64,000 bases of DNA, taken from Bartonella birtlesii IBS 325. Its GTDB lineage: Bacteria; Pseudomonadota; Alphaproteobacteria; Rhizobiales; Rhizobiaceae. Made by a program: the position numbers and the translations under genes. The notes under the pieces were generated by a model. It was not told the origin of the DNA. It did not search any database and was given only the letters and a program-made list of their open reading frames with translations. Below, in pieces: positions 4,637 through 55,201 of this stretch; the first letter of the stretch is position 1, and the number at the start of each line of letters is the position of its first letter. The stretch lies in assembly GCF_000273375.1 (NCBI RefSeq), contig NZ_CM001557.1, positions 10,001 to 74,000 on the forward strand, read 5' to 3'.

Positions 4637-4649
4637 TTTTACTTTATCT

Positions 4650-4894: not shown

Positions 4895-4900
4895 AGGCTT

Positions 4901-4929: not shown

Positions 4930-5573
4930 TCATTTTTTTTATTTTAAACATTTTTTAATTTTTAACGATAAGATGATGTAAAAAAGCAACAATGCCCTCA
5001 TGCAAATAAGTCACCTTATCCGCTTTAATGGGGTGTAACCTTCACGAAATCCCCACACCATTATGTTACTAATTCACAATCTTACTTTAAAAGAATCTCT
5101 TTACTTGAGTGCCCTTATTCCCCCCAACACCACCTAGAAAGTATAACGTAAGATCTATGAAATATGACAATCTTTACGTTATGAAATCAGTAGCATCATT
5201 ATATTTATCTACATCGCTAACGCATTTTCTCTTACATTAACATAGCACATTAATCGTATGTTTCAGTCTATTTTAAAACAACTTTTAAAATCACACGTTC
5301 GCCTTGAGGCTATCTCCCCCATTGGACTACCATAGTACTGTTTTTACTGTTTCAGAATTAAAAGTATTTGAAATAACTGAGTATTATAACATCAAGAATA
5401 TCGGCTCAAAATGCATAATGCTAATATATTTATAAATAAATTACTGAATTTTTTACACAAAACAAAAGACCGAGCAAAAATCAGCTTTATAAAATACTTT
5501 CCCACCAACTCCGAAAACTTTTTTCTCTTAACAAGAAAAAAACCAAAGTTTCAAGCCCTAAAATATAATGCCT
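4930..5573. other. AT-rich intergenic region
   Basis: It lies between the decarboxylase promoter and the 3' end of trhO. Only low-complexity short frames are present; I see no RNA gene, repeat or gene remnant. Confidence 0.45.
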
Positions 5574-6503: not shown

Positions 6504-6601
6504 AACGCGCGTTTCATTCAATTTCAAGATCTATTCATCTACTCTTTAACATATTGTGCTTAATCACACTATACGAACAACACACTCCTAGAGAAAAAAC
6601 C

Positions 6602-7267
6602 ATGTGCCAAAAAATAAATCACCTTTTAACACTCCTCCAAGCACAAACTGTCATCCCTGTTTTGCACATTGACGATCTCCAAATTGCTGTACCCTTAGCA
6701 CGCGCTCTTGTTAAAGGTGGATTGAAAACAATGGAGATCACATTGCGAACATCCAATGCATACGATGCAATAAAAGCAATTACACAAGAAGTGCCGCAAG
6801 CAATTGTTGGAGCAGGAACAATTCTCAATACCATACATTATGAACAAGCCGAACGCGCAGGAGCAAAATTTATCGTAAGCCCTGGATTATCAGACGAATT
6901 GATCGATTGTGCAAAAAACAGTGAAATCCCCCTTCTCCCTGGTGCAATAACACCAAGTGAACTCATGCAAGCATCGAATAAAGGCTATTCATATTTTAAA
7001 TTTTTCCCTGCCAAAGCGGCGGGAGGTATGGATTTTATCCAAGCCTTAGCAGCCCCTTTCTCTGAAATCAGATTTTGCCCAACAGGCGGCATTACACAAA
7101 AAAATGCAGCTCAATGGCTCCAACTTTCTAACGTCTTCTGCGTTGGCGGTTCTTGGATAGCTCCCAAACAGCTTATTACAGCAAATGATTGGGATACCAT
7201 CAGCGCACTAGCACATATAGCAGCACAACTCCCCTCTCATCCGACAAAAGCACGTTCCACAACATAA
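6602..7267 (+). CDS. eda: KDPG/KHG aldolase (2-dehydro-3-deoxy-6-phosphogluconate aldolase)
   Basis: Class I aldolase of the Entner-Doudoroff pathway, splitting KDPG into pyruvate and glyceraldehyde-3-phosphate; members may also act on 4-hydroxy-2-oxoglutarate. The 221-residue product has the catalytic glutamate in KTMEITLRTS, the phosphate-binding GAGTI loop, the Schiff-base lysine in YFKFFPA and the C-terminal FCPTGGIT motif. Length is normal (about 210). I start at the ATG 6602; an upstream in-frame ATG at 6554 would add 16 residues that do not look like the family. Its last 31 bases overlap the 3' end of the convergent fpr gene. Confidence 0.92.
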   Translation: MCQKINHLLTLLQAQTVIPVLHIDDLQIAVPLARALVKGGLKTMEITLRTSNAYDAIKAITQEVPQAIVGAGTILNTIHYEQAERAGAKFIVSPGLSDELIDCAKNSEIPLLPGAITPSELMQASNKGYSYFKFFPAKAAGGMDFIQALAAPFSEIRFCPTGGITQKNAAQWLQLSNVFCVGGSWIAPKQLITANDWDTISALAHIAAQLPSHPTKARSTT

Positions 7268-8067
7268 GTCGCTGGTGCATTATTTGCACCTTCAACAAGA
7301 CCAAAGGATTCACACATTCTTGCACAATCCTTCAGCATTGCCATCGAACCACAAATCATCACACGATCTTCATCAGGATGAATTCTTGGCAAACCTGTCG
7401 TTTCAAAAAAAGTACCGCGTTCCATAACCGTCGTAATGCGACCCATATGCTCAGAAGGTTCGCGAGTTGTCATAGGATAAAATTTCAACTGTTTTGCACA
7501 CTCACCAATTAGTGGATCTTCTTGTAAAGAAGCAACAAGTTCTTTTGCATAAATAAGTTCATCTTTTTTTCTGGTTGTTTGAATAAGAACCACTTCTAAA
7601 AACTTTTCATAAGTTTCAGGATCACGAATAAGGCTTGCAAAGGGAGCAACCCCTGTTCCCGTTGAAAGTAGATAAAGGCGCTTGCCAGGAATAAGAGCAT
7701 CCAAAACCAATGACCCAGTGGATTTTTTCCGCATCAAAACCGTGTCACCAATTTGAATTTTTTGTAGATGCTCGGTTAAAGGTCCACCTGGAACTTTGAT
7801 TGAAAAAAACTCAAGCTGTTCATCCCAAAATGGACTGGCAATCGAATAAGCACGATAAATTGGCTTTTTGGCATTCGGTAAACCAATCATAACAAATTCA
7901 CCCGAACGAAAACGAAAACTTTCCGGACGATTCAATCGAAATTTAAACAAACGATCTGTATAATGATAAACCTCTTGAACAATAAGCGCGAATACATTTT
8001 CAGAAATCGGAAAGTTTGACGTAACGCCGCTGATGTTTGATTGAACATTGGTAGCGAACATATTCAT
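7237..8067 (-). CDS. fpr: Ferredoxin/flavodoxin--NADP+ reductase
   Basis: FAD enzyme that exchanges electrons between NADPH and ferredoxin or flavodoxin. The 276-residue product has the FAD-binding motif YRAYSIASP, the SIKVPGGPLTEHL segment, the NADP-binding LLSTGTGVAPFASLIRDPE loop and MICGSMAMLKD near the C-terminus, and ends in a VERAFVG tail with the penultimate aromatic typical of the bacterial subclass I. GGGAAGAG four to five bases before the ATG at 8067 supports the start. It is convergent with eda and overlaps its last 31 bases. Confidence 0.93.
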   Translation of the reverse strand: MNMFATNVQSNISGVTSNFPISENVFALIVQEVYHYTDRLFKFRLNRPESFRFRSGEFVMIGLPNAKKPIYRAYSIASPFWDEQLEFFSIKVPGGPLTEHLQKIQIGDTVLMRKKSTGSLVLDALIPGKRLYLLSTGTGVAPFASLIRDPETYEKFLEVVLIQTTRKKDELIYAKELVASLQEDPLIGECAKQLKFYPMTTREPSEHMGRITTVMERGTFFETTGLPRIHPDEDRVMICGSMAMLKDCARMCESFGLVEGANNAPATYVVERAFVG

Positions 8068-30786: not shown

Positions 30787-32487
30787 TCAAAAACGATGGC
30801 GCAAACCAGCAGAAAAACCTGCTTCAGTAAGCCGATGCTGATAGATTACATCTCTATGAAGTGTGAATTCGGAGATAATTGTGCATTAAAACCAAGCCCT
30901 GCTTCAAGAAATAAACAAAAAGCACCCAACTAGAAATCTTTTTCAAAAGAGACAATCTGTTTATCTTCACAACTACGTGAAAGATAAAACTTATTATAAA
31001 AGGAAACAACACGACCTTCTTTAGAAGTAGAAAGAACCTTGGTAAAACGTCCACCAACACGCGCTATCCATTGTTCAACATTTCCCAAAATCAACATCAA
31101 GCTCATCAATATCACGCACACGATCAGACTGAAGATTCTGATAAATTAACTGCACCTGTGGATCAAAGAAAATACCCTTATGTCTCACAGCAAATGTTTT
31201 ACCGCCCTTTATGGCAATATTGACCTGCTTACTTTTTAACGTCGCTGTTTTATCCCGAATAAGTAAGAGAGCATCCCATCCATAAGAGAAGAAGTGCTCG
31301 CTTTAACCAATAGAGAAGCCTGACTTTCAGCTTTTAACAATAAATCACCAAAGATCTTCGTCTTTTCTGAGAATTCAAGAGTGCCTCTAATCCCATAATT
31401 CTTAGCCCCCTTCACATAAATAGCAATACCGTCTGGAACTGTCATATTTGTCTGTGATAAATAAACGAATGCTTTCCCCGTTACAACTGTTTTAGATTCT
31501 AAAAGCTTTTCATCCTCCCATTGCCTCAATATTTTCGCAAGTTCTTCTAGAGCTAAAACATTAAAATACAGACCATATGCTCCCTCCCTCTGTATAAAAA
31601 TATCATTTTTTTCTATCTTAATACTTGTATTCTGAAAGCCATTTTGTAAATTATATTTTTGTAATGATTTGCCATTTTCATCTGCATAACCTGAAAAATT
31701 TTTAATCAAGAAACCATGCATATGCTTAAGCTGAATCAATTATTTTTCAAATAAACATCACCATCTTGAGAAATCTCAAAAGCTTCTGGTAATATTCCCA
31801 TAGCTTCACCACTATTTATTATAGCTTCTTCTCTCTGCCCTTGTCCCGTAATAACCATAATATCGAGAAGATAGTGCCCGCCAAACCGTGTTGAAAATGA
31901 GCCAGTCTGATTAAAAGTAACGGTACCGCTTGACATTCTAAACATTGCACCCAAACCACGAACAAGTCCAATCCCTGTCATATTTAAATTATCCGTCTCA
32001 ATTTCGATATTCACACTCGATAAAGTAATATCCGTTTCTCTCCCCCATGCGTAAACAGCATGTGATATTCCCTTAATTGCCCCTACCGTCATACCAATAA
32101 CTGCATTCTGAGCACGAATCCCAGCTATATCCTTAAAATTTGAAGCTATGAGATTAAGCCTTCCACCATTTTTTACATAAGCACTATATGCAGATATTTT
32201 ATCTGGATTATCACCATAAACTGTTATCTGTGATGCATTAACAATAGTGTCTACATTTTCTATATACAGAGCTGCAACAAGCGCCATACGAAGAGACGTA
32301 TGCTGAAAATTTTTAAGTAATAAACTCTATCTGCAAATGTGCGTACCCTACTATCATTAGCACTATAAAACGCCTTTCCTAAATCACCTGAAGTTCCTGC
32401 GGCATGAACATAACTAATTGGTAAAAAATAAAAAATAGCTGTTGTAAAAGTGCATAAAAATATATGATTACGAAATACATTGACCAT
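30787..32487 (-). pseudogene. Autotransporter relic: passenger with internal deletion into the barrel
   Basis: From the 5' side (32487) it has a signal peptide (MVNVFRNHIFLCTFTTAIFYF...), a frameshift near 32300 in AAAAATTTT, passenger sequence closely related to the gene at 33357-36668 (VNASQITVYGDN, IKNFSGYADENGK, VYLSQTNMTVPDGIAIY), another frameshift at 31737, then at about 31250 a jump straight from passenger (SSLMDGMLSY) to the middle of the barrel (RDKTATLK, out of frame), and finally a barrel C-terminus riddled with stops, ending GLRHRF. A few hundred codons, including the linker and the first barrel strands, are deleted. No product of function is expected. Confidence 0.88.
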
Positions 32488-32637: not shown

Positions 32638-33408
32638 CTAAAAACGATGACGTAAACCACTAGAAAAACTTACTTCAGAAAACCCAGCTTTAGTAAGCCG
32701 ACGCTGATAGGTTATATTTCCATGAAATGCAAGCCTTGGAGATAATAGAGCATTAAAACCAAGCCCTACCTCTAAAGGAGTGCCAAAAGCACCTAATTGA
32801 AAATCTTTTTTAAAAGACACAATCTCTCTCTCTCTAAAATTATAGGAAATATAGAGCTTACTATAGAAAGAAATAACACGCCCTTCCTCAGAAGAAGAAA
32901 AAAACTTACTTAAACACCCACCAAAACGCGCTGTCCATTGATCAAATTTTCCCAAATCAACATCAATATTATCAACATCATGCACACGATTAAATTGAAG
33001 ACGCTGATAGAGAAGCTGAATCTGTGGATTAAAAATGATACTCTTATGCCCTGCGATAAATGTTTTACCACTAGTCAAAGAAGTATTAAGCTGTCTTCCC
33101 TTTAACGTTGCTGTCTTATCCCGAATAAGGGTAAACACATCTCCCTTAAACAAACCATAAGAAAATACGCCATTTACGTAAAAATCTGTATCATGCTGCA
33201 TATTTCCATAAGCAGCAACAGACCATTTATCAAATGGACTCTTTTTGCTATATTCAACATCTTGAGGATACAGGGAGAGGCTTCCATAAGTGCCCATAAC
33301 CCCAAATAATGTGTGACTGTATAAACTTTCAATTTCTTTTAAAAAAATACCTGCTTCTAGTGCCGTATAATCGAGATCAGCCCCATACCCATATTCAAGA
33401 GCAGACAA
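32638..33408 (-). CDS. Autotransporter beta-barrel, 3' half of a frameshifted gene
   Basis: The 256-residue frame is the barrel of the gene whose passenger lies at 33357-36668. It carries the family barrel phrases FDKWSVAAYGNMQ, GLFKGDV, RDKTATLKG, FNPQIQLLYQRLQF and ends in the outer-membrane signature GLRHRF with a C-terminal phenylalanine. It is out of frame with the passenger by one base; the correct joining point is the C5T5 tract at 33448-33457. It has no ribosome-binding site of its own, so it should be made only if the frame is restored. Confidence 0.85.
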   Translation of the reverse strand: MSALEYGYGADLDYTALEAGIFLKEIESLYSHTLFGVMGTYGSLSLYPQDVEYSKKSPFDKWSVAAYGNMQHDTDFYVNGVFSYGLFKGDVFTLIRDKTATLKGRQLNTSLTSGKTFIAGHKSIIFNPQIQLLYQRLQFNRVHDVDNIDVDLGKFDQWTARFGGCLSKFFSSSEEGRVISFYSKLYISYNFREREIVSFKKDFQLGAFGTPLEVGLGFNALLSPRLAFHGNITYQRRLTKAGFSEVSFSSGLRHRF

Positions 33409-36400
33409 ATTTGAAGCATAATGATAATTTCCGCCATAACCACGAACAAAAAGGGGGAAATTTCATCATTTTTCAAAAGACTACCAGCAACCCTTCGCAT
33501 AATTTTTAATTTTTTATTTTGAATGGTCAAATCCATCAAGCCAGCTTGGAACAGGGCATTGGGCAACAAAAGATATGTTGGCAATTGCGGAACAATAGCT
33601 CTAACTTGAGACTTAGGCTGAATATCAGGCTGAACAGAAACCTCTGGCAAAGAATCTACGGGTTTAAATGGCTCAGAAGACTTTGGCTCAATAGATGTAA
33701 GAGAGAAAGAAGCCGTGGGGTCAGATGGCTCAGATGATGGTACAGGCAAAGAAGATGCAGGAAGAGAATCCTTAGACAAAGTATTTACAAGAACAGATGG
33801 CTCAGATGGTAGTACCTCTGTAGGTGTTTTAGTTGGTACAAACGGCACAGATTGCGCAGAAGAAGGATTCTTTGGATCAGGTGGAATGGACGCAGATAGA
33901 GTGGAATCCGTAGGAAGAGAATCTACCAAAGCAGATGGTACAACAGAAGAAGGCTTTTTTTCAATAGATGTAAGAGAAAGAGAAGCCGTAGGATCAGGTG
34001 AATCAGATGATGGTACAGGCAAAGAAGGTGCAGGAAGAGAATCCTTAGACAAAGTATTTACAAGAACAGATGGCTCAGATGGTAGTACCTCTGTAGGCAT
34101 TTTAGTTGGTACAAACGGCACAGATTGCGCAGAAGAAGGATTCTTTGGATCAGGTGGAATAGATTCGGATAGAGTGGAATCCGTAGGAGGAGAATCCACC
34201 GAAGCAGATGGAATAACAGAAGAAGACTTTGGTTCAATAGATATAGGTGAAAGAGAAGCTATAAGATCTGACGGTTCAAGTACTTCAGACAAAGACGGTG
34301 TAGATGATGGTACAGGCAGCGGTTCAATAGAAGAAGATGCAGAAACAGAATCCTTAGACGGAGGAATGACCGAATCGATTGGTTCAAATGGTGGAACTTC
34401 AGCAGAAGTTTCAGTTGGAACAAGTGGTGCAGGCACAGGTTGTACAGAAGAAGAATCCCTTGGATCAGCTGGAACAGGTACAACTGGAGCAGAATCCATA
34501 GATGGAGAAACTATAGGAGTAGATGCCTCAGCCCCGGAAGTCCCTGTTTCTACAGCTGTAGAAACGGTAGAAATAGAATTCGTAGGAGCAGATGTTTCAA
34601 ATGATTCAGATACTTCAAGTAAAGACGGTGTTGATGCTACAGGCACTGAATCAACAGAAGGAGATTGTTCAGCTAAAGACGATGGAGGCGAAATGGGCTC
34701 TACTGGTGGCTCAGAAGGAACAATTCCTGATTCAGGGAGGGATGGTAAAAATGGAGAATCTAAAGACGAAACAGAAGTAGATTTAGATTCAGAAGAATTT
34801 GATTTAGGATCAATATAAACACCTTCGAGACGAAAATCCCAAAAATCTCCACTTCCTGCAACCAATCGATTCTCTAATTGTGATTGTCCCCAAGAAGAAG
34901 TTGGACCATAAGCGCGAAGATGATATTGATAAGGAAAACCATTAATTGTAATATAATTATTAATTAATTTAAAAGAATTTTCCTCCGCCGTCCCAGCAAC
35001 TTGAACAAGTGAAATACTTTGACTTTCTTTATTGCCTACTTCTTCTCCTGAAGTTTTGGAAAAGTTTTCCATCACGAGCAATGTAGTTCCCCAGACATTC
35101 CCGTAGATCAGAATGCGATCAGTTTTCTCAGGATCAAATAAACCATTCTTATTGAGAAACGTGCCGAGCTTAATCTGAGTATTACCATCTGCACCATATA
35201 CATACTCCTCGTCATCTAACATTACTTGGTTTATATCACTTTCTTTTCCAATATGCAGCGTTTGATAACCACTAGATTGATAATGATCAAAAGCAATTGT
35301 ACTATCTTCAAGAGAAATACCTGAAAGCGATGAAACCGTAGCATCTGCCTCCTGTGAGCCTTTATATTTACTTTTGGTAAGAAGCCATTTAGAACCACGC
35401 TTTAAATTCAAATAAATATCAGAAGTATCTTCAACACGAGAATCTCCTGTAAGTGTAGAGGAATTTGCTTCAACGAGAAGATAAGAATCATTCTCAGCTT
35501 TTAATAACAAATCACCGGAGATTTTTGTGTTTTCTAAGTTAACTATAGCTTGAGCTCCATAAACATCATCTCCGGCACTATAAATAGCTATACCATCTGG
35601 AACCGTGAAATTTGTCTCTGATAAATAAACAAACGCTTCTCCCATAACAACTTGTTGCGCTTCGGAAAACGTTGAAGGTGTTATATAATCCTCTAACAAA
35701 TCAACCCATGCATTTGGATCTAACCCATAAAAATACAGACCACGTGCTCCCTTCCCCTTAATAGAAATATCTGTATTTTCAATTTTAATATTTGTCTTTT
35801 TAAACTCATACGATGAATTAAATTTATTAATTAATTTGCCATTATCATCTGCATAACCTGTAAAATTTTTAATCAAAAAACCATGCATGCCAATAAGTTC
35901 TACCGGACTATTCCTTAATTGAACGTTACTACCTTGAAATACCTCAAAAGCGCCTAGTAATTTATCAATATTTTTTTCGTCTTCTATAACAGTTTCTCGT
36001 TTCCCTATTCCCTTAATAACAGTATTATCAAAAGTATATTGCCCTCCAAATTGTGCTGAAAACGCACCAATCTCATTAAAAGTAACGGTACTGCCTGACA
36101 TCCTAATCTTTGAACCAAAACTGCTAACAAGACCTATCTCTTGTGTACTATTTAATTGACTTGGTTTAGTCTCAATATTTATACGCACCAAAGCAACATC
36201 GGTTTCTATCCCAAATGCATCCATAACAAGAGAAGTCCCCGTAATCGACCCATCTGTCATGCGAACAACTGAATTTTGAGCATGAAGTGCAAGAACATCC
36301 TTAAAATTTGCATTTTTTAAATCAAGATGTGCACCACCTTTTAGATATGCACCATACACATTTCCTTGACCTGAATTATCGCCCGTAACAGTTATCTCAG

Positions 36401-36668
36401 ATGCATTAACAACTGTACCTTGTCCTTCTATATACAAAGCTGCAATAGGAGCGGAATCAGAAGAAACTCTCCAAGAATTTTTTAAATGATAAGTTTTATT
36501 TCTTATTGTGTGTTTTTTACCATCACCGCATATATACACACTCTCGCTGTCATCACAGTTTTTCTTAAAACTATTGGGAGCTGCATAAACACTCATGACG
36601 AGCAAAAAAGAAACAGGTGCAGCTGTAAAAGAGAATAAAAACCTATATTTTCTCAGTATATTAACCAT
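33357..36668 (-). CDS. Autotransporter passenger with Pro/Ser repeat linker, frameshifted before the barrel
   Basis: The 1103-residue frame has a signal peptide (residues 1-29), a C-x(8)-C-GDGK N-terminal motif, a beta-helix type passenger ending at FWDFRLE (about residue 611), a Pro/Ser/Thr-rich linker of some 400 residues with three 91-residue repeats, and the helix RAIVPQLPTYLLLPNALF leading to the barrel. The frame is then lost in a C5T5 tract (33448-33457) and ends after about 35 out-of-frame residues. The barrel continues in the next frame. It may be phase-variable or simply inactivated. Confidence 0.88.
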   Translation of the reverse strand: MVNILRKYRFLFSFTAAPVSFLLVMSVYAAPNSFKKNCDDSESVYICGDGKKHTIRNKTYHLKNSWRVSSDSAPIAALYIEGQGTVVNASEITVTGDNSGQGNVYGAYLKGGAHLDLKNANFKDVLALHAQNSVVRMTDGSITGTSLVMDAFGIETDVALVRINIETKPSQLNSTQEIGLVSSFGSKIRMSGSTVTFNEIGAFSAQFGGQYTFDNTVIKGIGKRETVIEDEKNIDKLLGAFEVFQGSNVQLRNSPVELIGMHGFLIKNFTGYADDNGKLINKFNSSYEFKKTNIKIENTDISIKGKGARGLYFYGLDPNAWVDLLEDYITPSTFSEAQQVVMGEAFVYLSETNFTVPDGIAIYSAGDDVYGAQAIVNLENTKISGDLLLKAENDSYLLVEANSSTLTGDSRVEDTSDIYLNLKRGSKWLLTKSKYKGSQEADATVSSLSGISLEDSTIAFDHYQSSGYQTLHIGKESDINQVMLDDEEYVYGADGNTQIKLGTFLNKNGLFDPEKTDRILIYGNVWGTTLLVMENFSKTSGEEVGNKESQSISLVQVAGTAEENSFKLINNYITINGFPYQYHLRAYGPTSSWGQSQLENRLVAGSGDFWDFRLEGVYIDPKSNSSESKSTSVSSLDSPFLPSLPESGIVPSEPPVEPISPPSSLAEQSPSVDSVPVASTPSLLEVSESFETSAPTNSISTVSTAVETGTSGAEASTPIVSPSMDSAPVVPVPADPRDSSSVQPVPAPLVPTETSAEVPPFEPIDSVIPPSKDSVSASSSIEPLPVPSSTPSLSEVLEPSDLIASLSPISIEPKSSSVIPSASVDSPPTDSTLSESIPPDPKNPSSAQSVPFVPTKMPTEVLPSEPSVLVNTLSKDSLPAPSLPVPSSDSPDPTASLSLTSIEKKPSSVVPSALVDSLPTDSTLSASIPPDPKNPSSAQSVPFVPTKTPTEVLPSEPSVLVNTLSKDSLPASSLPVPSSEPSDPTASFSLTSIEPKSSEPFKPVDSLPEVSVQPDIQPKSQVRAIVPQLPTYLLLPNALFQAGLMDLTIQNKKLKIMRRVAGSLLKNDEISPFLFVVMAEIIIMLQICLLLNMGMGLISIIRH
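33688..34500 (-). repeat. Three 273-bp tandem repeats (91 residues each) in the passenger linker
   Basis: The phrase TCAATAGATRTARGWGARAG recurs at 33688, 33961 and 34234 on the plus strand, exactly 273 bases apart. The first two copies are nearly identical and the third is degenerate. On the coding strand they encode Pro/Ser/Thr/Asp-rich repeats (with SAQSVPFVPTK and PSEPSVLVNTLSKDS). Confidence 0.9.
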
Positions 36669-44439: not shown

Positions 44440-47400
44440 CTAGAAATTATAACGCAGTCCACCAGAAAAACTAGTACCAGAAAAACCAGCTTTCGTTAGC
44501 TTGTGCTGATAAACCAGATCACCATGAAGTACAAATTTCGGAGACAATTGAGCATTAAAACCTAATCCCGTCTCTAGTGCAGAACCAAAAGCGCCCAATT
44601 GAAAAGCATCTTTAAAATGCGCAAATTGTTTCCCTCCAAAACCATGTGCGACATGCACCTTTCCGTAAAAAGAAATGACACGCGCTTCTTCTCCTACAGT
44701 AAGCATCTTTGTTAAACGTCCACCAACACGTGTTACCCACTGATCAATATTTCCTATCTCAATATCAAAATCATCTATATCATGGGCCTTATTAAATTGG
44801 AGACGCTGGTAAACGACCTGAATTTGGGGATCCAAAATAAGACCTTCATCGCCTATCATAAACGGCTTACCAGAAGTCAATGAAGCGCTTAGAGAATTCC
44901 CTTTTAACGTTGCTGTCTTATCCCGCGCAAGAGTGAGAACATCACCTTTAAACAAACCATAAGATAAAAGGCCATCAACATAAAAACCCGCATCCCACTG
45001 CATACCACCATACGCCGTAACGACCCATTTATCAAAAGTACTTTTTCGACTCTGTTCAACGTTTAGAGGCTGTAAAGAAAGCCTTTCATAAGATCCTATC
45101 ACTCCAAAAGAACTAGAACCATATATATTTTCAATCTTTTGTAGCAAAACACCTGCATCAATGGCATTATAGTCAAGTTCACCTCCATACCCATATTCAA
45201 GCATAGAAAGATTTGACGTATAACGGTGATTACCACCATAACCACGCATAAAGAAAGCGGGGGTTTCACGCATTTCTAACATCCCACCGGAAACAACGCG
45301 TAATGACTCCAACCACTTGTTTTTATTATCAATATTAATCAAATCTGTATGGAACAAAGCATTTGGCAAAAGCAAATAAGTTGGAACTTGTGGAACAACA
45401 GCCTTAACACCCGGCTTAGGAAGAGGCTCTGGTTCTGGAGAAGGTGTGGGCCCCGGTAATGGATCAGGAGCCGGCTTTGGCTCAGGCTCAGGCTCAGGCT
45501 TAACATATCCATTTTCAAGACGAAAATCCCAAAAATCCCCTTCACCTTTAACTTGTCTTTGAGAAGCTTCCCCCTGCCCTAATTCAGAACTTGGACCATA
45601 AGCATAAAGTCGATACTGATAAGGTGCATTATCTAACGCGACATAACCACCGTCTAACTGAAAAGAATCCTTCTCTGCCTTACCAGAGACCTGAATAATT
45701 GAAATTCCTTGGTTATTTCCACCACTACCCGTAACTCCTCCTGGACTTCCTGAAACAGCACGCACATGAACCATAGTTTTTCCCTCAACATCACCATGAA
45801 TTAAAACACGATCTGTCTGTTGTTTATCAAGGGGCCCTCCCTCATTCAGATATGTATTAAAATAAATATGCGCACCATCTTGCGCCTTATAAGCAACACC
45901 AATGCCATTTCCAATGCTAAGTTTTTGATAACTGTAGCTCTGATCAGCTGCAGGCTTTAATTTTGTAAACTTAATAGAACTCTCATTCATAAGAGTAACG
46001 TGTGAAACAGATGAATCATTTATCAAACTCAATCCACTCTGTTCTCTCTCTCCTGATTTTCTTAAAATCCATTCAGAATTATCGCCCAAATAAAGTTTAG
46101 CAGTAGAAATGTCATCAATATGAGCTCCCCCCTCAAGGGTAGAATGCGTAGCCAAAACTGTTAAAGAAGCCCCCTTCTCAGCTTTTAAGAATAAATTCTT
46201 TGAACTCAACGTACTTTCTGTTAAACTAACAATACCTTTAATGATGTTAGTGCTTTGAATAGCATTATCTTCAACAGAAAATTTTGTCTTATTCAAATCA
46301 ACAAATTCCATTCTAGAGCGTTTTTTGTCTTCTTCTGATGAATCTTCTTCGTGAAGATTAGATTCTGTCAACGGCTTATTTCCTTTAAAATAGATACCGT
46401 AAGATCCATGACCATTTACATTAACAGAAGAAGATTTAATATTAACTTCAGTTACAGAAACTTTCGACTCGGAATCCTCATCCGATAAATCTTTAACTTT
46501 CTGAAAAGGAATAGAATTGGAGATATTGACTGCATTTTCTAATAATATGCCATGGATATCCGTAGCACTAATAGTAGTACCCTTTAAATTCACATCCCCC
46601 TCTAAGTCCGTATGTACAACTGCATGATTACCCGAATTTTTTTCTTTACCCTTCCCAGTAATTTTAACATTCTCGAGATTTATCTTTCCACCTAGCCTCG
46701 AAGAAATCCCATGGCTGTTCATAAAATCAATGGATCCACCAGACATCCAAATCTCTGAACGATCATAACTTAAAAGACTTGCATTCCCATTAGCAGTTTT
46801 AATATCTGTATCTTCTAAAAGAACAAACGAACTCTCTGCTGCATCAACACCCTCATGATTTTCTTCAATCTTCCCATTCTTTACCTCAATCACTCCATTA
46901 GTCGCACGAAGAGCTATAGTTGTACCTTTGACAGTCGGAGCTTCCAAAACGATCTTGCCATTCTCTGATGCATGCATACCAATTAGAAAATTTTCATCAG
47001 AAACATTACCACTAACCGTTACATCCTTACCCTTAACTTCTGTACCTATTCCCTTCACCGTTATAGCAGTAAAGCTAGTAGGTTCCCATTCGTTGGTAGA
47101 ATTATTGGTAGAATTATAAGATTTATTATCAATTTGACCGTTTCCGCAATCATTGCATATATAATATGTACCATCATATAGCGTCACCTGATTCTTAGCG
47201 GTATCATACTTATAAGTATAGCTACCATCCTTATCCCCACCTATCCCACTAAGAGGCTTAGAGTTATTCCCACTAAGAGGCTTAGAGTTATTATTCCCAC
47301 TAAGAGGGGAAATAGCAGAAGCGAGATTTATAGTTCCACTCGACCCAGGAGATATAACAGGAGAGCCATCTAGATAAGAAGGCACTATAGGAATAACTTT

Positions 47401-47511
47401 GATAGTATATTTCTCTGAATTTGCACCAACTGCTACTCCATTTTGTAATAAAGAAAAGACAGCTGTTGTGACAGTATATAAACACATACGATTTCTAAAT
47501 ATTTTAATCAT
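44440..47511 (-). CDS. Autotransporter with Pro-Glu linker, intact
   Basis: The 1023-residue protein has a signal peptide (residues 1-30), a short SGNNNSKPLSGNNSKPLSG repeat (about residues 70-90), the cysteine motif YYICNDCGNG, a long passenger with beta-helix-type strands (GMHASENGKIVLEAP, ATDIHGILLENA), FWDFRLE at about 660, a linker built of Pro-Glu/Pro-Lys dipeptides (about 668-697), VKAVVPQVPTYLLLPNALFH at about 700 and a barrel ending in GGLRYNF. It has its own upstream box (227 bases away) and strong terminator. Confidence 0.92.
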   Translation of the reverse strand: MIKIFRNRMCLYTVTTAVFSLLQNGVAVGANSEKYTIKVIPIVPSYLDGSPVISPGSSGTINLASAISPLSGNNNSKPLSGNNSKPLSGIGGDKDGSYTYKYDTAKNQVTLYDGTYYICNDCGNGQIDNKSYNSTNNSTNEWEPTSFTAITVKGIGTEVKGKDVTVSGNVSDENFLIGMHASENGKIVLEAPTVKGTTIALRATNGVIEVKNGKIEENHEGVDAAESSFVLLEDTDIKTANGNASLLSYDRSEIWMSGGSIDFMNSHGISSRLGGKINLENVKITGKGKEKNSGNHAVVHTDLEGDVNLKGTTISATDIHGILLENAVNISNSIPFQKVKDLSDEDSESKVSVTEVNIKSSSVNVNGHGSYGIYFKGNKPLTESNLHEEDSSEEDKKRSRMEFVDLNKTKFSVEDNAIQSTNIIKGIVSLTESTLSSKNLFLKAEKGASLTVLATHSTLEGGAHIDDISTAKLYLGDNSEWILRKSGEREQSGLSLINDSSVSHVTLMNESSIKFTKLKPAADQSYSYQKLSIGNGIGVAYKAQDGAHIYFNTYLNEGGPLDKQQTDRVLIHGDVEGKTMVHVRAVSGSPGGVTGSGGNNQGISIIQVSGKAEKDSFQLDGGYVALDNAPYQYRLYAYGPSSELGQGEASQRQVKGEGDFWDFRLENGYVKPEPEPEPKPAPDPLPGPTPSPEPEPLPKPGVKAVVPQVPTYLLLPNALFHTDLINIDNKNKWLESLRVVSGGMLEMRETPAFFMRGYGGNHRYTSNLSMLEYGYGGELDYNAIDAGVLLQKIENIYGSSSFGVIGSYERLSLQPLNVEQSRKSTFDKWVVTAYGGMQWDAGFYVDGLLSYGLFKGDVLTLARDKTATLKGNSLSASLTSGKPFMIGDEGLILDPQIQVVYQRLQFNKAHDIDDFDIEIGNIDQWVTRVGGRLTKMLTVGEEARVISFYGKVHVAHGFGGKQFAHFKDAFQLGAFGSALETGLGFNAQLSPKFVLHGDLVYQHKLTKAGFSGTSFSGGLRYNF

Positions 47512-48163: not shown

Positions 48164-51100
48164 TTAAAACTGATAACGGACTCCTCCAGAAAAACTTGTT
48201 CCAGAAAAACCAGCCTTATTGAGTTTATGCTGATAGACAAGATCCCCATGAAGAGAAAACTGTGCAGACAATTTGGCATTAAAGCCTAAACCAGCCTCTA
48301 AAGAAGAACCAAAAGCACCTAACTGGAAAGCATCTTTGAAATACACAGCTTTTTTGCCTCCAAAACCATGGGCAAGATAAAGCTTACTATAAAATGTAAC
48401 AACATTCACTGCTTCAGAGTTCTTAGGAGTCTTACTCAAACGTCCACCAACACGTGCTACCCACTGATCAAGTTTTCCCATTTCAATATCAAAACCATCA
48501 ATATCATGGGCTTTATCAAACTGCAGATGTTGATAAATAACCTGAACTTGCGGATCAAATACAAAACCTTCATATCCTGTTGCAATTGTCTGGCCACCAG
48601 TCAAAGAAACACTTAAAGGATTGCCTTTTAATGTGGCTGTCTTACCTCGTGCAAGGGTAAGAACATCACCTTTAAACAAACCATAAGACACAAGACCATC
48701 TATATAGAATCCAGCATCATGCTGCATACTACCATATGCCGTAGCAGTCCATTTATCAAACGCACTTTCTTGACTTTGTTCAACATTCAAAGGCTGTAAC
48801 GAAAGTTTTCCATAAGATCCCATAACTCCAAAGGACACAGTATTATCAACATTTTCAATTGTTTGTAATAAAAGCCCTGCCTCTACACCATTATAATCAA
48901 GGTCACCTTTGTAACCATATTCAAGTGCAGACAAATCTGAAGTGTAACGGTAATTTCCACCATAGCCACGCAAATATAACGCAGGACTTTGGCGACCTTC
49001 TAACATTCCATTAAACCTAACTCGCAGTGTTTCCAACTGCTTGTTTTGATTGCTGATATCCATCAAACCAGCATGGAATATGCTATTAGGCAAGAGTAGA
49101 TAAGTTGGAACTTGTGGAACAACAGATCTGACAAATCTTTCAGAAAGAACAAATCCAACCATAGGAGTGGTAGGTTTAACATACTGATTTTCTAAACGAA
49201 AGTTCCAGAATTCTCCTCCATCCTTAACAAATTTTTGCTGAACATGCTCCTGTTTCGAAGTTTCTTTTGGGCTATAAGAACGAAGAGCATATTTGTAAGG
49301 TGAATTCAACAGTGCAACATAACCACCATTCAGCAAGAAAGAATCTTTTTCTGCCTTTCCATAAACCTGAATAACTGGAACACTATGAGGAATCCTTTTA
49401 TCACTCCTACCTTTTTCTCCTACATCACCGGAAACTCCTTGTACATGTATTTTTGTTTTTCCAGAAACATCACCATGAATTACAACCCTATCAGTTACTT
49501 GCTCTTCACTCCGATCACTAGGGTTTAAACGCGCATTGAGACGTATTGAAACGTTACCGTGAACCTCATAAACCTTGCCGCTCCCATTTCCAATACGGAG
49601 AGTCTGATACAGATTTCCAGATTCTGGAGCAACAAACTCAATAGCACTATCTACAAGACGTACAGAGGAAGCACAAGAATCTACACACTCTGAATCTGTA
49701 GTACCCCAATTCTTATGTTCACCTCTTTTTATAAACCACTCTGATCCATTAGTCAGATCTAAATTGACATAAGAATTTTTTTCAATACTTGAACCTCCTA
49801 CAATAACCGAGTCATTAACCGAAAGCGATATATTAGAATTATTCTCAGCTCTCAACAATAAGTCACCAGAAAGTTTTGTTTTATTTTCTAAGGAAACACC
49901 TCCACTAGAATGATTTCCATAAATAGCAACACTCTTTATAACTTCGAAATCAGTTTTTTTCAATGAAACCATACCCGTTGTTATATCTATAGGTGTTCTT
50001 TCTTGTAAAGATTTAGCACTTCGCTTAACAACATCGGCTTTCTCAGCAGAATGTCCTCTTTCAGTCGACTTGGCAACAACCTTCACTGGAACCTTATTTT
50101 TATTCTGTTGACCAACCTCTTGTTGCTCTCTCCCATCAAAATATATACCATAGGATTTATCACCTTCCACCCTAACAGTTGAAGATTCAATTTTAGCATA
50201 ATTCATAGAAGGTTTAGCATAATTCATAGCAGGAAGAATATCAGAAGATCTCTTTTTCCTAGAAGAACCGGTTTCAACAACATTACTCGTTCCTTTAACC
50301 CACAAAGCATTGGCATCAGTGACAACATTACCATTTGCAAACTCAACAGAAGCATTATCACTCACCAAAATAGCAGCACGTCCAAACCTATCTATAGAAT
50401 TCGACTCTCCTGTACCTTTTTTAGCCGTAATGACAACCTTATCTAATTTAATATGCGCCCCTGTTTCTGCCCGAACTGCTATCCCATTTTTCAGAGAAAT
50501 TGTCCCAGAATCCATAGTTATCTCACCGCCTTTACTCGCTAAGCCAGCGGCAACCCCTCCCCCTACCATATTAATTTTCGTATTACTTAAATTAACAGAT
50601 GCTCCAGTGCCAGCCAAAGCTCCCACATAACGAGCATTGACCATTCCTTCAATCATTTTCACCTCCCCACCTTTTTGCGCTTCCAACCCAATCACAGAAG
50701 ATGTAATGTTTGATTTCTTATCTAGAATAACTTTCGCACCTTCTTCTGCAAGCACAGCACTCGCAAACTGAGATCCAGTAAAATCAACATCATTTTCATT
50801 ACCAGAAGAACCTGCTCCGCTAATTGTAGCACCTTCTAGGTTAATGACCGTATCCTGACTTTTTGCATACATAGAATGCTGAGCTTGATTACTCGCTGTC
50901 AGTGTAACTCCTTTAACCGTATATGATTTACCATTATCGCATGAATAAGAAACTAGCGATTTCTTATCACCATTTCCATTCGAAATACTACAATTAGAAC
51001 CATCTTTTTTACCTGTACTAAGCCCCTCAGAAGTCAAAGGCTTTGTAGGCTTTGTAGAGGCAGTAGACTTCAATGAAACTATAGCTACAGGTTCATTCGG

Positions 51101-51682
51101 TACTGTAAAAGTAACATTCTGAGGTAATTGAGAATTTCCAGAACCAGGCAAAAGACGTCCTACTGCTGAAGATTCTTTCTGTTTAGACACCGTGGATTCT
51201 ACATTTTTAGAACCTTCATTAGATTTAGAACCTTCATTAGATTTAGAACCTTCATTAGATGAAGTAGGTGTAACAGTTACGATAGACGGACCAGATGGAA
51301 TTCCAGTAGATGGAATTGTTACAATATCAATTTCATTAGAATCACTATCAGATATTATTGTATTACCCTCTTCATCTACTACATCATATCCTTGCCTATC
51401 CAATACTGCTCCAGTACCTGTTACGGTAAGAGATTCTGTAGTTTCAGAATTTTCACTATCCTCTTCAGGGGATTCAAAAGAAGGAACTAATGTTACAGAA
51501 GGCTCACTTTCTTCGGTTTCTTCGGTTTCTTCAGTTTCTTCAGACACTGGAATGGTAAGCGCACGAGCTTTAGACACATATAAAAAATGTCCGTTATCCT
51601 CATAGGGTATATTTTGGCTTTCTAAACGAAAATCCCAAACATCTCCACTATTCCTCACCAATGTCTTATCAAAATAATTCAT
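48164..51682 (-). CDS. Second passenger and barrel of a frameshifted giant autotransporter
   Basis: The 1172-residue frame has no signal peptide. It starts inside the C-terminal part of a first passenger (GDVWDFRLE), continues with an acidic Glu/Thr linker (repeats of EET and of SNEGSK), a second complete passenger with its own C-x(n)-C-DNGK motif (CSISNG ... SCDNGKSYTVKG), FWNFRLE at about 827, VVPQVPTYLLLPNSIFH at about 854 and a barrel ending in GGVRYQF. The frame is open upstream to about 51835, where it meets the end of the preceding ORF at an A7 tract (T7 at 51833-51839, plus strand). Restoring one base gives a single protein of about 1965 residues. Confidence 0.85.
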   Translation of the reverse strand: MNYFDKTLVRNSGDVWDFRLESQNIPYEDNGHFLYVSKARALTIPVSEETEETEETEESEPSVTLVPSFESPEEDSENSETTESLTVTGTGAVLDRQGYDVVDEEGNTIISDSDSNEIDIVTIPSTGIPSGPSIVTVTPTSSNEGSKSNEGSKSNEGSKNVESTVSKQKESSAVGRLLPGSGNSQLPQNVTFTVPNEPVAIVSLKSTASTKPTKPLTSEGLSTGKKDGSNCSISNGNGDKKSLVSYSCDNGKSYTVKGVTLTASNQAQHSMYAKSQDTVINLEGATISGAGSSGNENDVDFTGSQFASAVLAEEGAKVILDKKSNITSSVIGLEAQKGGEVKMIEGMVNARYVGALAGTGASVNLSNTKINMVGGGVAAGLASKGGEITMDSGTISLKNGIAVRAETGAHIKLDKVVITAKKGTGESNSIDRFGRAAILVSDNASVEFANGNVVTDANALWVKGTSNVVETGSSRKKRSSDILPAMNYAKPSMNYAKIESSTVRVEGDKSYGIYFDGREQQEVGQQNKNKVPVKVVAKSTERGHSAEKADVVKRSAKSLQERTPIDITTGMVSLKKTDFEVIKSVAIYGNHSSGGVSLENKTKLSGDLLLRAENNSNISLSVNDSVIVGGSSIEKNSYVNLDLTNGSEWFIKRGEHKNWGTTDSECVDSCASSVRLVDSAIEFVAPESGNLYQTLRIGNGSGKVYEVHGNVSIRLNARLNPSDRSEEQVTDRVVIHGDVSGKTKIHVQGVSGDVGEKGRSDKRIPHSVPVIQVYGKAEKDSFLLNGGYVALLNSPYKYALRSYSPKETSKQEHVQQKFVKDGGEFWNFRLENQYVKPTTPMVGFVLSERFVRSVVPQVPTYLLLPNSIFHAGLMDISNQNKQLETLRVRFNGMLEGRQSPALYLRGYGGNYRYTSDLSALEYGYKGDLDYNGVEAGLLLQTIENVDNTVSFGVMGSYGKLSLQPLNVEQSQESAFDKWTATAYGSMQHDAGFYIDGLVSYGLFKGDVLTLARGKTATLKGNPLSVSLTGGQTIATGYEGFVFDPQVQVIYQHLQFDKAHDIDGFDIEMGKLDQWVARVGGRLSKTPKNSEAVNVVTFYSKLYLAHGFGGKKAVYFKDAFQLGAFGSSLEAGLGFNAKLSAQFSLHGDLVYQHKLNKAGFSGTSFSGGVRYQF

Positions 51683-51759
51683 TTTTGCAGGGATAGACGG
51701 ACCATAACCACGAAGAACATACTTATAAGGCGTCCCTTCTCGTGTAATATAACCACCTT

Positions 51760-54063
51760 CTAAAGTAAAACTGTCGCTTTTTGCCTCTCCAAAAACTTGA
51801 ATAAGTGATGTGCTATAAAGTGTATCCTGTTCTTTTTTTCATTACTATTTGAAGTGTCATGTACAGACACTTTTGTTTTCCCATCAACATCACCATGAAT
51901 TAATAACCTATCGGATATTTGAGAATTCTCCGCTTCGCTAGGCATCAAATTCGCATTGAAATGAACTTTAGCATCACCCTTAGTGCTAAAAACTACACCA
52001 TCCCCTTTCCCTATACGAAGTATTTGATAACCTTGGTTTACTTGCTTTACTTGCTTTACTTGCTTTGCTTGATCTCCACCGTTTACTTGCTTTGCTTGGT
52101 CTGCTTGATCTCCACCTTGAGAGGCTGCATTGTTTCCAGATCCCAAAGACATAAACCGAATATTACTATTTCTAAGTGTTATAGACGAAATACATGAATC
52201 TAAACATTTAGAGCCATCAAGCCTCTGATTTTTATCTTTTATTAAATGCCATTCCGATCCCTGTAAAAAAATCTTTGCATTAGAACTTTCATCAACACGA
52301 GCAGGACCACCAATTAAAGAGTTATAAGCAAAAATCGACATATTAGAAGAAGATTCAGCTTCCAATAGTACTCTTCCAGAAAGAACAGATTCGTCTTTTA
52401 AGATAACAGAACCATTTAAATCAAGACCCAAAACTGCCACACCATCTGGAACTTTAAAAGAGGATTTCTTTAAAAGAACCGCACGCAAATTGGCTTTTTT
52501 TCCTACATTTCCTCTACTTTCTTCTTCCTCTTCTTGCTTCTTACTAAAGTGGATACCATAAGTATCTCCCGTCAAACGAATCCTTGAAGATCTAATACTA
52601 GCACTAACCCCTAAAGAATCTTTACTAAAGAAACTATCCCCCTCTGTAATAGCTTTTATAGTGGAGACAACATCATCAAAAGCTTCATTTTTAGCTTGAT
52701 AAGCTCCATAAGCTCCATAAGTTTCATGAGCTTCAATAACTTTATCAAGGGAATGCGCTCCATTCTCCTCATGAAAAAGAGAAACATTATCAACAAAGGG
52801 AATACCACCTGAAACGTGGAAATCAGTATTTGAATTAGGGATAGGAGGTATTTCATTACTAGGTTCTGGTATCGGAACACCAGCTAACGAGTTAATATTA
52901 TTCTTGGAAACACTAGAAACTTCATCACGAATCCAGAAAAGAGGAACATTAGAAATATCTAATTTCCCATTATCAAAGGAAATAAAACCTTTTGTATCTG
53001 ACAAGAAGACAAAACTCCCTGTATTACTTGTCCCATTACCACCAGGTTTAGATTTAATTTTAACTTTGTCTAAATTAATAGCAGATCCATCTCTCGACAC
53101 AACTCCTATTCCACCCATTTTGGGAAAAATAATTGACCCAGACTTCATCATAATACCGGAATGGTTATCAGCAAATAAACCAATTTTAGTGGTATCATCC
53201 TCACTAGTATTATTATAGTAACTTACATCAACTTCAACATGACCCAAAAAAATAGACGAAAAACTATCAGCAAAAGCACCAATATCAACATTTCTGATTT
53301 TTCCCCCCTTCATGGTAATCCATCCACCTTGTTCAGCATGAAGTCCGACAGCAAAAGTCTTAATATTTGATTCGTCTAATCTAACCCTTGAACCTGCTTT
53401 TGTCACAAATACAGCACTCCCCTTTCCTGCTGCTTCACCGGACCCCTTGTTTTCATCACCACTTCCCAAAAGACGTTGGATAGGAGACTCAAAACCGCTA
53501 TCATTAGAAGGACGGACTCCCCACAAATACATTTTCTGTAGTTTAATATCCGTCCTCCTATAGTCTTCCCCTGCTTTTCCTTTTGTAGATATGGGATTTT
53601 CACTATATTTTGTTACTTCAATTTTACTGTTTTTTGCAGTGTACACTCCACCACTGCAGACAATAGGTTTATGCTCAAGATTATAATTACTATGATGATT
53701 ATCTTGAGCAGTACCTATCTTACACTTACTGACGGACTCCGCCCTAGGAGCACCACCGGAAGGAATGCTATTAATACCATTATCTCGAATACCATTATCT
53801 CGAATACCATTATCTTGAATACTATTATCTTGAATACTATTATCTTGGATACCATTACCCCGAATACCACTACCCCGAATATCATTACCCCGAATACCAC
53901 TACCCTGAATATCATTACCCTGAATATCATTACCCTGAATATCATTACCCTGAATATCATTACGTACCTGTGCCCCCACAGAAACATTAACAGCTTGTAA
54001 AAAGAAGAGAGCACTTGTCGTCAGTGCGCACAAACGTGTACGCTTTTTAAATACATTGGTCAT
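51760..54063 (-). CDS. Signal peptide and first passenger of the frameshifted giant autotransporter
   Basis: The 767-residue frame opens with a signal peptide (MTNVFKKRTRLCALTTSALFFLQ), then about 13 five-residue repeats (NDIQG / SGIRG / NGIRD), a cysteine pair (CKIG ... IVCSGGVYTAKN), and a beta-helix-type passenger with FKVPDGVAVLG and LLIHGDVDGKTKVSV phrases. The last 30 residues are out of frame: the A7 tract at 51833-51839 shifts it away from GEAKSDSFTLEGGY...DVWDFRLE, which continues in the frame of 48164-51682. It reads divergently from the iron transporter genes. Alone it lacks a barrel and could not be displayed. Confidence 0.85.
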   Translation of the reverse strand: MTNVFKKRTRLCALTTSALFFLQAVNVSVGAQVRNDIQGNDIQGNDIQGNDIQGSGIRGNDIRGSGIRGNGIQDNSIQDNSIQDNGIRDNGIRDNGINSIPSGGAPRAESVSKCKIGTAQDNHHSNYNLEHKPIVCSGGVYTAKNSKIEVTKYSENPISTKGKAGEDYRRTDIKLQKMYLWGVRPSNDSGFESPIQRLLGSGDENKGSGEAAGKGSAVFVTKAGSRVRLDESNIKTFAVGLHAEQGGWITMKGGKIRNVDIGAFADSFSSIFLGHVEVDVSYYNNTSEDDTTKIGLFADNHSGIMMKSGSIIFPKMGGIGVVSRDGSAINLDKVKIKSKPGGNGTSNTGSFVFLSDTKGFISFDNGKLDISNVPLFWIRDEVSSVSKNNINSLAGVPIPEPSNEIPPIPNSNTDFHVSGGIPFVDNVSLFHEENGAHSLDKVIEAHETYGAYGAYQAKNEAFDDVVSTIKAITEGDSFFSKDSLGVSASIRSSRIRLTGDTYGIHFSKKQEEEEESRGNVGKKANLRAVLLKKSSFKVPDGVAVLGLDLNGSVILKDESVLSGRVLLEAESSSNMSIFAYNSLIGGPARVDESSNAKIFLQGSEWHLIKDKNQRLDGSKCLDSCISSITLRNSNIRFMSLGSGNNAASQGGDQADQAKQVNGGDQAKQVKQVKQVNQGYQILRIGKGDGVVFSTKGDAKVHFNANLMPSEAENSQISDRLLIHGDVDGKTKVSVHDTSNSNEKKNRIHFIAHHLFKFLERQKATVLL
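53776..53966 (-). repeat. 15-bp minisatellite encoding pentapeptide repeats
   Basis: About 13 units of a 15-base motif such as ACCATTATCTCGAAT (plus strand) lie head to tail, encoding NDIQG-like pentapeptides just after the signal peptide. Copy number is easily changed by slippage without loss of frame. Confidence 0.9.
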
Positions 54064-54259: not shown

Positions 54260-55201
54260 ATGATGATGATAAAATATCTAAAATGGGTAACTTCTGTTCT
54301 GCTAATCGCAATAAGTTTTACAACTTATTCATGGGCAGGTATAGATGTTAAAGAAAATATAACTATTGATCATGTTTCAGGCACAACTTCTGTTCCCACT
54401 GCTCCACAAAAAGTTATTGTGTTTGATATTGCCTCACTTGATAATATGAATCGACTTGGGATCAAAGCCGTTATCGGTATTCCTGAAGGGAAAAAGCCTT
54501 CATATTTGCAGCAGTTTAATGATGCACAATATGAAAAAATTGGTACCCTTTTTGAACCTGATTATGAAAAAATTGCCACTCTTCAGCCTGATCTAATTAT
54601 TATTTCCTCAAGAACTCAAGCTAAATATAAAGATTTATCCAAAATTGCTCCAACTATTGATCTAACTGTAGGAAATGAAAATTCTCTTGCGGATATCGAA
54701 CGAAATGTGTCTATCCTTGGGAAAATTTTTGGCAAAGAAAAAGAAGCTGAAGCAGAGATTACAGTACTTAAGGAAAATTTAGCAAAAGTCCGTGAAAACA
54801 CCCAAGGGAAAGGCACAGGGCTTGTACTGATGACTTCTGGTGGCAAAATCAGTGCTTTGGGTTCAAAATCGCGGTTTGATATTCTCCATTCCGCCTTTGG
54901 TATTGCTCCCGCAACCGATAAACTCACAGTACAAAAACATGGGCAGCTCATTTCTCCTGAATTCATTCTCGAAACCAATCCTGATTGGTTATTGGTTATT
55001 GATCGGGATGCAGCAATCGGACGGGAAGGACAATCTGCTGCACAACTACTTAACAATGAGCTTGTTCACCGCACAACGGCCGGCCAAAAAAAGCAGATTA
55101 TTTATTTAGATTCTTGGAGTTGGTATCGTGCAGCTGGTGGTTTAACAGGGCTTAACGAAGCAGCACAACAAATCAATGAAGCCTTTACAAAAAGCAAATA
55201 A
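54260..55201 (+). CDS. Iron-siderophore ABC transporter substrate-binding protein (FatB/CeuE-like)
   Basis: The 313-residue protein has a signal peptide (about residues 5-25) and a periplasmic-binding-protein class III core: PQKVIVFDIASLDNMNRLG, FEPDYEKIATLQPDLIIISSR, and a C-terminal LDSWSWYRAAGGLTGLNEAA. This matches the FatB/CeuE/YclQ cluster that binds catecholate or hydroxamate iron complexes. No lipobox cysteine is seen, so it is probably a soluble periplasmic protein. AAAGGATAAA precedes the ATG. The permease and ATPase genes follow, separated by a terminator-like hairpin. Confidence 0.9.
   Translation: MMMIKYLKWVTSVLLIAISFTTYSWAGIDVKENITIDHVSGTTSVPTAPQKVIVFDIASLDNMNRLGIKAVIGIPEGKKPSYLQQFNDAQYEKIGTLFEPDYEKIATLQPDLIIISSRTQAKYKDLSKIAPTIDLTVGNENSLADIERNVSILGKIFGKEKEAEAEITVLKENLAKVRENTQGKGTGLVLMTSGGKISALGSKSRFDILHSAFGIAPATDKLTVQKHGQLISPEFILETNPDWLLVIDRDAAIGREGQSAAQLLNNELVHRTTAGQKKQIIYLDSWSWYRAAGGLTGLNEAAQQINEAFTKSK

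What the first reader, a model, noticed from the sequence alone, without database searches (positions are those of the whole stretch)
48164..54063. Giant two-passenger autotransporter with an A7 tract at the frame break
The ORFs 51760-54063 and 48164-51682 are two halves of one gene: adding or removing one base in the A7 tract (51833-51839) joins LLIHGDVDGKTKVSV to GEAKSDSFTLEGGY and gives one protein of about 1965 residues. It would hold signal peptide, passenger 1 ending WDFRLE, an acidic linker, passenger 2 with its own cysteine motif ending WNFRLE, and a single barrel. That looks like fusion of two tandem paralogues with loss of the first barrel. The break at a homopolymer suggests on/off phase variation.
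Basis: partly seen in the sequence, partly recalled or inferred. Interest (0 to 1): 0.8.

Follow-up and report, generated by a model that had tools for sequence, protein, structure and literature searches.

The report
Broken copy of two-passenger Bartonella autotransporter
Two neighbouring genes in this Bartonella genome are the halves of one very large surface protein that many related species make in one piece; here the reading frame is broken, probably by a chance mutation or a sequencing slip rather than an evolved on/off switch.

Summary
The ORFs at 51760-54063 and 48164-51838 (minus strand) overlap in different frames. The break cuts the autochaperone (AC) of passenger 1: the upstream ORF matches AC profile positions 5-96, the downstream frame 104-146. 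Both halves lie in one open frame in 37 of 71 Bartonella genomes, and a B. silvatica protein runs straight through the homologous place.

So the two-passenger, one-barrel reading is right, but it belongs to a whole set of Bartonella species, not to this strain. Passenger 1 is hypervariable; passenger 2 and the barrel are conserved. Membership of the Iba/CFA autotransporters is likely but indirect.

Phase variation is not supported. A/T runs of 7 or more occur 1.2 times per kb here; relatives lack the tract (A>=7 in 2 of 21); a published Bartonella survey looked at runs of 9 or more; no second isolate was found. A second autotransporter of the array is broken without any long run. A private frameshift (decay) or an assembly error fits best; a slippage switch is not excluded.

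The parts
51760..54063 (-). upstream ORF: N-terminal half (signal peptide, passenger 1, first part of autochaperone 1)
   Evidence: both halves in one ORF in relatives
53974..54063 (-). Sec-type signal peptide (by eye; about 30 residues)
   Evidence: hydrophobic stretch; similar starts printed for the 21 named relatives; no predictor was run
53773..53963 (-). 15-base repeat array (12.7 copies; period keeps the frame)
51844..53673 (-). passenger 1, beta-helix, hypervariable
   Evidence: model: most helix blocks at pLDDT 80-97, with low-confidence inserts; mean of the whole ORF 67.3; best PDB match pertactin; 29-36% identity to five relatives
51838..52215 (-). autochaperone 1, first part (profile 5-96)
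51760..51838 (-). 79-nt overlap of the two open frames; the frame break lies here
51833..51839 (-). A7 tract (coding strand)
51695..51823 (-). autochaperone 1, second part (profile 104-146), in the downstream frame
51620..51637 (-). WDFRLE motif ending passenger 1
50996..51610 (-). acidic, repeat-bearing linker between the passengers
   Evidence: no significant match to five relatives
48164..51838 (-). downstream open frame (first ATG 51682): passenger 2 and barrel
49706..50995 (-). passenger 2, beta-helix, more conserved
   Evidence: 51-59% identity to five relatives
49256..49705 (-). autochaperone 2
49190..49207 (-). WNFRLE motif ending passenger 2
48164..49099 (-). single autotransporter beta-barrel
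   Evidence: PF03797 E 1e-24; 79-85% identity to five relatives
44440..47511 (-). next gene of the array: single-passenger autotransporter; a similar gene follows the giant in the named relatives
54260..55201 (+). divergent iron-type ABC transporter substrate-binding gene, found beside the giant in relatives
   Evidence: positions compared by eye

Best explanation
This is a frame-broken allele of a giant classical (type Va) autotransporter of Bartonella. In relatives the gene is one open frame: Sec signal peptide, passenger 1 (hypervariable beta-helix) with autochaperone 1, variable linker, passenger 2 (more conserved beta-helix) with autochaperone 2, one barrel. Inferred mechanism of the intact form: the barrel exports the chain C-end first, passenger 2 folds on autochaperone 2, then passenger 1 folds on autochaperone 1 and stands as the distal, variable tip. 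In this assembly translation of the upstream frame stops inside autochaperone 1, so the product lacks a barrel, and the downstream frame shows no signal peptide; the protein is probably not displayed. The break was seen only in this sequence and is most likely a chance indel (decay of one member of a fast-turning array) or an assembly error, not an evolved switch.
For: Autochaperone 1 is split between the two frames. In 37 of 71 Bartonella genomes both pieces match within one open frame of 1653-2405 aa (for G070). Of 28 named loci, 21 hold a whole single-frame copy, and all 21 have two autochaperones and one barrel. 51 of 55 database proteins have two autochaperone matches, some partial. B. 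silvatica protein P0057 is continuous across the homologous place, with a nearly whole autochaperone 1 (profile 7-146). The passenger 1 model loses confidence from residue 743. Neighbour gene and array order recur. The tract is not conserved (2 of 21) and such runs are common. A second array member is broken in an interval without a run above 5. Published: Bartonella autotransporter clusters expand and contract by tandem duplication and deletion (PMC2697382, passages).
Against: The break does coincide with one of the longer runs of the gene. B. silvatica's copy is listed as two proteins with the division in the linker, so breaks of this gene may recur; three more genomes look split but hold unread bases. 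Decay and assembly error cannot be told apart without reads or sister isolates. Display and function of the relatives' proteins were not tested.
Confidence: 0.72

Rival explanations
1. Phase-variable contingency locus: slipped-strand mispairing in the A7 toggles the giant protein on and off.
For: The break interval holds an A7. Bartonella has documented homopolymer contingency loci; their on/off genes show length ranges such as A8-9, A7-9 (cdiA), G7-12 and C6-14 (PMC11466379, sections 10 and 11). The product is the kind of surface antigen that is often switched.
Against: That survey asked for runs of 9 or more in at least two strains; here the run is 7, and 464 kb of this genome hold 469 A/T runs of exactly 7. 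The tract is not conserved: A>=7 in 2 of 21 relatives at the homologous interval, 0.77 expected from the giant genes' own density of 0.30 per kb. The other broken array gene has no such run in its break interval. In that survey 20-35% of the repeats lay in the first 5% of the gene; this one lies far inside.
Confidence: 0.13
2. Sequencing or assembly error at a homopolymer; the living strain has an intact gene.
For: Break at a homopolymer; single-frame orthologues in 37 of 71 genomes; 2 of 96 conserved genes in a 400-kb sample of the same assembly are also split, one near a T7, one near runs of 5-6 T.
Against: The assembly is one contig, 99.98% complete. The reverse comparison flags 7 of 88: by eye five are one stretch matching twice (tandem copies), one is a plain split and one a split near its end, so this assembly is not clearly worse. 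The second broken array gene is not at a long run.
Confidence: 0.25
3. Programmed recoding: ribosomal or transcriptional slippage on the A-rich heptamer makes some full-length protein.
For: The heptamer AAAAAAG lies in the dnaX-like codon phase at the break (the dnaX comparison is recalled).
Against: The same heptamer in the same phase occurs in 3 other ORFs of the 25 scanned, at places without a frame break. No stable RNA structure follows: z +0.67, 149 of 200 shuffles fold at least as well. Relatives read the gene in one frame.
Confidence: 0.06
4. Two separate functional genes: a secreted truncated passenger and a barrel protein.
For: Both frames are long and open. B. silvatica's copy is also listed as two proteins, divided elsewhere.
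Against: An autochaperone is cut across the frames; the downstream frame shows no signal peptide and the upstream one no barrel; 37 of 71 genomes have one open frame.
Confidence: 0.03

Closest known systems
Bartonella Iba / CAMP-like factor autotransporter (CFA) group, B. quintana BQ10280-BQ10290
   Same: adjacent Bartonella autotransporter genes; a B. quintana genome here has the giant (1915 aa frame) followed by a 1035-aa autotransporter, as the window has; a table names BQ10280 and BQ10290 inducible Bartonella autotransporter and CAMP-like factor autotransporter, higher at 28 C (PMC3595295, passages); reviews call CFA hypervariable (passages)
   Different: orthology to B. henselae Cfa not tested: its two primary papers are not held and its sequence was not identified here; this copy is frame-broken
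Pertactin and other type Va autotransporters with AC_1 autochaperone (PF18883)
   Same: beta-helix passenger, AC_1, PF03797 barrel; pertactin is the top PDB fold match for both pieces, with modest TM-scores (by target length 0.49 and 0.64)
   Different: two passengers and two autochaperones on one barrel; by eye no two AC_1 matches listed outside Bartonella share an open frame (the list is cut)
SSR contingency loci of Bartonella (badE, cdiA, vblA and others; PMC11466379)
   Same: homopolymer at a frame break in a surface-protein gene
   Different: run of 7, not conserved, no observed length variation, deep inside the gene
BafA (Bartonella angiogenic factor A)
   Same: Bartonella autotransporter (PMC7366657, passages)
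   Different: the B. quintana BafA passenger is given as 481 residues in one piece; the giant has two passengers

Membership tests
Type Va (classical) autotransporter | C-terminal PF03797 barrel | tested here: met
   downstream ORF, E 1e-24
Type Va (classical) autotransporter | beta-helical passenger | tested here: met
   models of the two pieces, folded apart (mean pLDDT 67.3 and 50.2, high in the helices), pertactin as best PDB match; the barrel part of the second model is below pLDDT 50
Type Va (classical) autotransporter | autochaperone AC_1 | tested here: met
   AC_1 in the downstream ORF; own profile in both halves. Pfam AC_1 does not match the upstream ORF but matches 15 of 22 members of its alignment
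Type Va (classical) autotransporter | signal peptide, passenger and barrel in one reading frame | tested here: not met
   broken in this sequence; met in 37 of 71 genomes
CAMP-like factor autotransporter (CFA) | orthology to B. henselae Cfa | not tested
   primary papers not held; only an indirect link through BQ10280/BQ10290
CAMP-like factor autotransporter (CFA) | hypervariable surface part with conserved barrel | tested here: met
   P1 29-36%, P2 51-59%, barrel 79-85% identity to five of the 21 named relatives
SSR contingency locus | unusually long or conserved repeat | tested here: not met
   A7; A>=7 in 2 of 21 relatives; common in the genome
SSR contingency locus | length variation between isolates or cells | not testable with these tools
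   no second isolate of the species among the hits: none above 76% identity
Programmed frameshift gene | slippery heptamer in phase | tested here: met
   but also in 3 other ORFs
Programmed frameshift gene | stimulatory structure and conservation of the split | tested here: not met

The most novel reading that the evidence does not exclude
A single barrel exports two separately chaperoned beta-helices in series, the distal one a fast-changing, exchangeable tip, and slippage at the A-run inside autochaperone 1 switches display of the whole double passenger. Two copies in one genome with identical autochaperone 2 segments but unlike autochaperone 1 segments (G064) fit tip exchange; the switch part rests only on the A7.
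Probability: 0.13. Interest if true: 0.7.

Novelty: new variant of a known kind. Interest (0 to 1): 0.42.

Why it matters
Two passengers with two autochaperones on one barrel raise a testable question about type V secretion: can one barrel export and fold two beta-helices one after the other, and is the distal one a replaceable antigenic tip? The paper searches found no description of that layout: 'two passenger domains' in none of the 15 listed of 253 papers, 'two autochaperone' or 'tandem passenger' in none of the 20 listed of 58. The two primary CFA papers could not be read, so this is not a claim of absence from print. The break itself is a caution: an A7 at a frame break is not evidence of phase variation in an AT-rich genome.

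Tried and rejected
Rejected: (1) conserved tract: none. One search's motif search found passenger 1 intervals in only part of the copies and used other limits (A runs 4-8); one search replaces it. (2) Recoding: no RNA structure, heptamer in phase elsewhere. (3) Other split copies: three more genomes (G029, G035, G038) looked split, but their copies contain unread bases (N) and are not counted as breaks. (4) G067: a closed 1171-aa single-passenger form whose autochaperone groups with P1, not a split. (5) Fusion against internal duplication: the tree puts most P1 and P2 autochaperones as nearest groups but leaves exceptions (the P1 pair P0023/G064, G070 P1, the P2 pair P0041/G065; three single-passenger genes lie inside the groups), so it does not decide. 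(6) Same-species isolates: none found; one search says that records of the window's own genome may be left out, and the search excludes proteins as long as the giant. (7) PDB by sequence: 0 matches for the passenger 1 alignment, one weak match (Vag8, E 0.006, to the barrel part) for the second half.

Rows dropped: of 28 named loci seven were left out: L086 and L090 (other autotransporters), L092 (same strain and length as L078), L093, L094 and L096 (gene cut at the locus end, L094 also single-passenger), L095 (unread bases). Choosing single-frame copies was part of that selection. The identity figures use five of the 21. The own autochaperone profile was built from five window genes, so it leans toward this family. 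The barrel model is poor.
Full report
What is there. The window lies in a Bartonella chromosome (1.83 Mb, one contig; genus from the named relatives; species unnamed). On the minus strand, 32638-54063 is an array of autotransporter genes next to iron-type ABC transporter genes. The first member of the array is in two pieces: ORF 51760-54063 (767 aa) and an open frame 48164-51838 (1224 aa; first ATG at 51682) in another frame, overlapping by 79 nt with a run of seven A inside.

One gene, not two. A profile of the autochaperone (AC) domain built from five array genes matches the upstream ORF over positions 5-96, ending at residue 742, and the downstream frame over 104-146: the break cuts the AC of passenger 1. 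With the pieces searched apart, both fall in one open frame of 1653-2405 aa in 37 of 71 Bartonella genomes (open-frame columns, compared by eye; the match lists were cut; for G070 the first-passenger AC comes). The other 34: the window's own genome; three whose copies contain unread bases (G029, G035, G038); one single-passenger form (G067); 29 in which I recognised no giant in the listed matches. Of 28 named loci, 21 hold a whole single-frame copy, and all 21 have two ACs and one barrel. Of 55 database proteins, 51 have two AC matches, some partial; P0040, P0044, P0052 and P0055 have one. The only database match to the upstream half is B. silvatica P0057 (63% over 676 columns; that search excludes proteins as long as the giant). 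It runs on through the homologous place and into the start of the downstream half. That protein ends in the linker, and the protein with the neighbouring locus number (P0052, partial) begins at passenger 2, so that copy is divided elsewhere.

Layout. The model of the upstream ORF (mean pLDDT 67.3) has a confident beta-helix from about residue 131, with low-confidence inserts, and falls below 50 from residue 743. Passenger 2 is also a confident beta-helix; the barrel part of that model is poor (mean of the whole 50.2). Pertactin is the best PDB match for both, with modest TM-scores. Identity to five of the 21 relatives is 29-36% for passenger 1, 51-59% for passenger 2, 62-66% for AC2 and 79-85% for the barrel; the linker has no significant match. 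The neighbouring substrate-binding protein is 93% identical to that of G068, whose giant is only 30% identical in passenger 1. The halves share 27% identity over 568 columns. In an AC tree most P1 and most P2 sequences form neighbouring groups, with exceptions; one genome (G064) has two giants with identical AC2 segments and unlike AC1 segments. In the stretches fetched from ten other genomes of the genus (G006, G008, G011, G028, G037, G040, G041, G042, G046, G047) each autotransporter frame has at most one AC. Outside Bartonella no two listed AC_1 matches share an open frame, by eye (199 and 385 genomes, a few of them Bartonella; the list is cut).

Cause of the break. Against an evolved switch: 79 A/T runs of 7 or more in the window, so 0.10 expected in 79 nt; 469 runs of exactly 7 in 464 kb; at the homologous interval A>=7 occurs in 2 of 21 relatives, 0.77 expected (for passenger 2 it is 1 of 21). 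A 2024 study of Bartonella contingency loci surveyed runs of 9 or more; its on/off genes show length ranges such as A8-9, A7-9, G7-12 and C6-14 (PMC11466379: abstract, passages, sections 10 and 11), so a 7-base state is not unheard of. Against recoding: the heptamer is in the same phase in 3 other ORFs of 25 and no stable RNA structure follows it. For decay: another array member (33357-36668 with 32638-33462) is also broken, in an interval without a run above 5. For error: 2 of 96 conserved genes in a 400-kb sample are split in this assembly, both near T runs; the reverse comparison flags 7 of 88, by eye five of them one stretch matching twice, one a plain split and one a split near its end.

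What it does. Shown: the domain layout and its conservation. Inferred from type Va autotransporters in general (recalled): C-end-first export with AC-driven folding, passenger 1 as distal tip. Without a barrel on the upstream product or a visible signal peptide on the downstream one, this allele is probably silent. The link to the Iba/CFA autotransporters is indirect: in B. quintana, adjacent genes BQ10280 and BQ10290 are named inducible Bartonella or CAMP-like factor autotransporters and are higher at 28 C (PMC3595295, passages); a B. quintana genome here has the giant and a 1035-aa autotransporter next to it. Which BQ gene is the giant was not checked. Reviews describe CFA as needed for erythrocyte infection in B. 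taylorii and hypervariable (PMC10288214 and PMC10936683, passages). The primary CFA papers were not held. Autotransporter clusters of Bartonella are described as expanding, contracting and evolving fast (PMC2697382 and PMC3610622, passages).

Verdict. The observation and the two-passenger reading are right; the phase-variation reading is not supported. The broken copy is ordinary; the double-passenger, double-autochaperone layout is the interesting part.

Noticed in passing
33357-36668 and 32638-33462 (minus strand): Another autotransporter of the array is frame-broken at the start of its barrel, in an interval without any run longer than 5.
   Followed up: partly
about 31075-32326 (minus strand): Short ORFs with a weak barrel match (E 4e-4; two of the ORFs match no Pfam family): perhaps a decayed autotransporter remnant at the end of the array.
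   Followed up: partly
L158 (G064), two giant genes of 2405 and 1771 aa: Two giant copies in one array share an identical autochaperone-2 segment but have unlike autochaperone-1 segments, as if the distal passenger were exchanged.
   Followed up: partly
L144 (G067), 4357-7869: Single-passenger form with a P1-type autochaperone directly before the barrel.
   Followed up: partly
G216:C3:201498-201772 and G211:C2:287183-287525: AC_1 domains matched in two pieces lying in two different open frames, as in the window, in other genomes of the family.
   Followed up: no
L097:1103-6619: A second autotransporter cluster on the other strand, just past the window, has an 1839-aa gene with one autochaperone and several beta-helix matches.
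   Followed up: no
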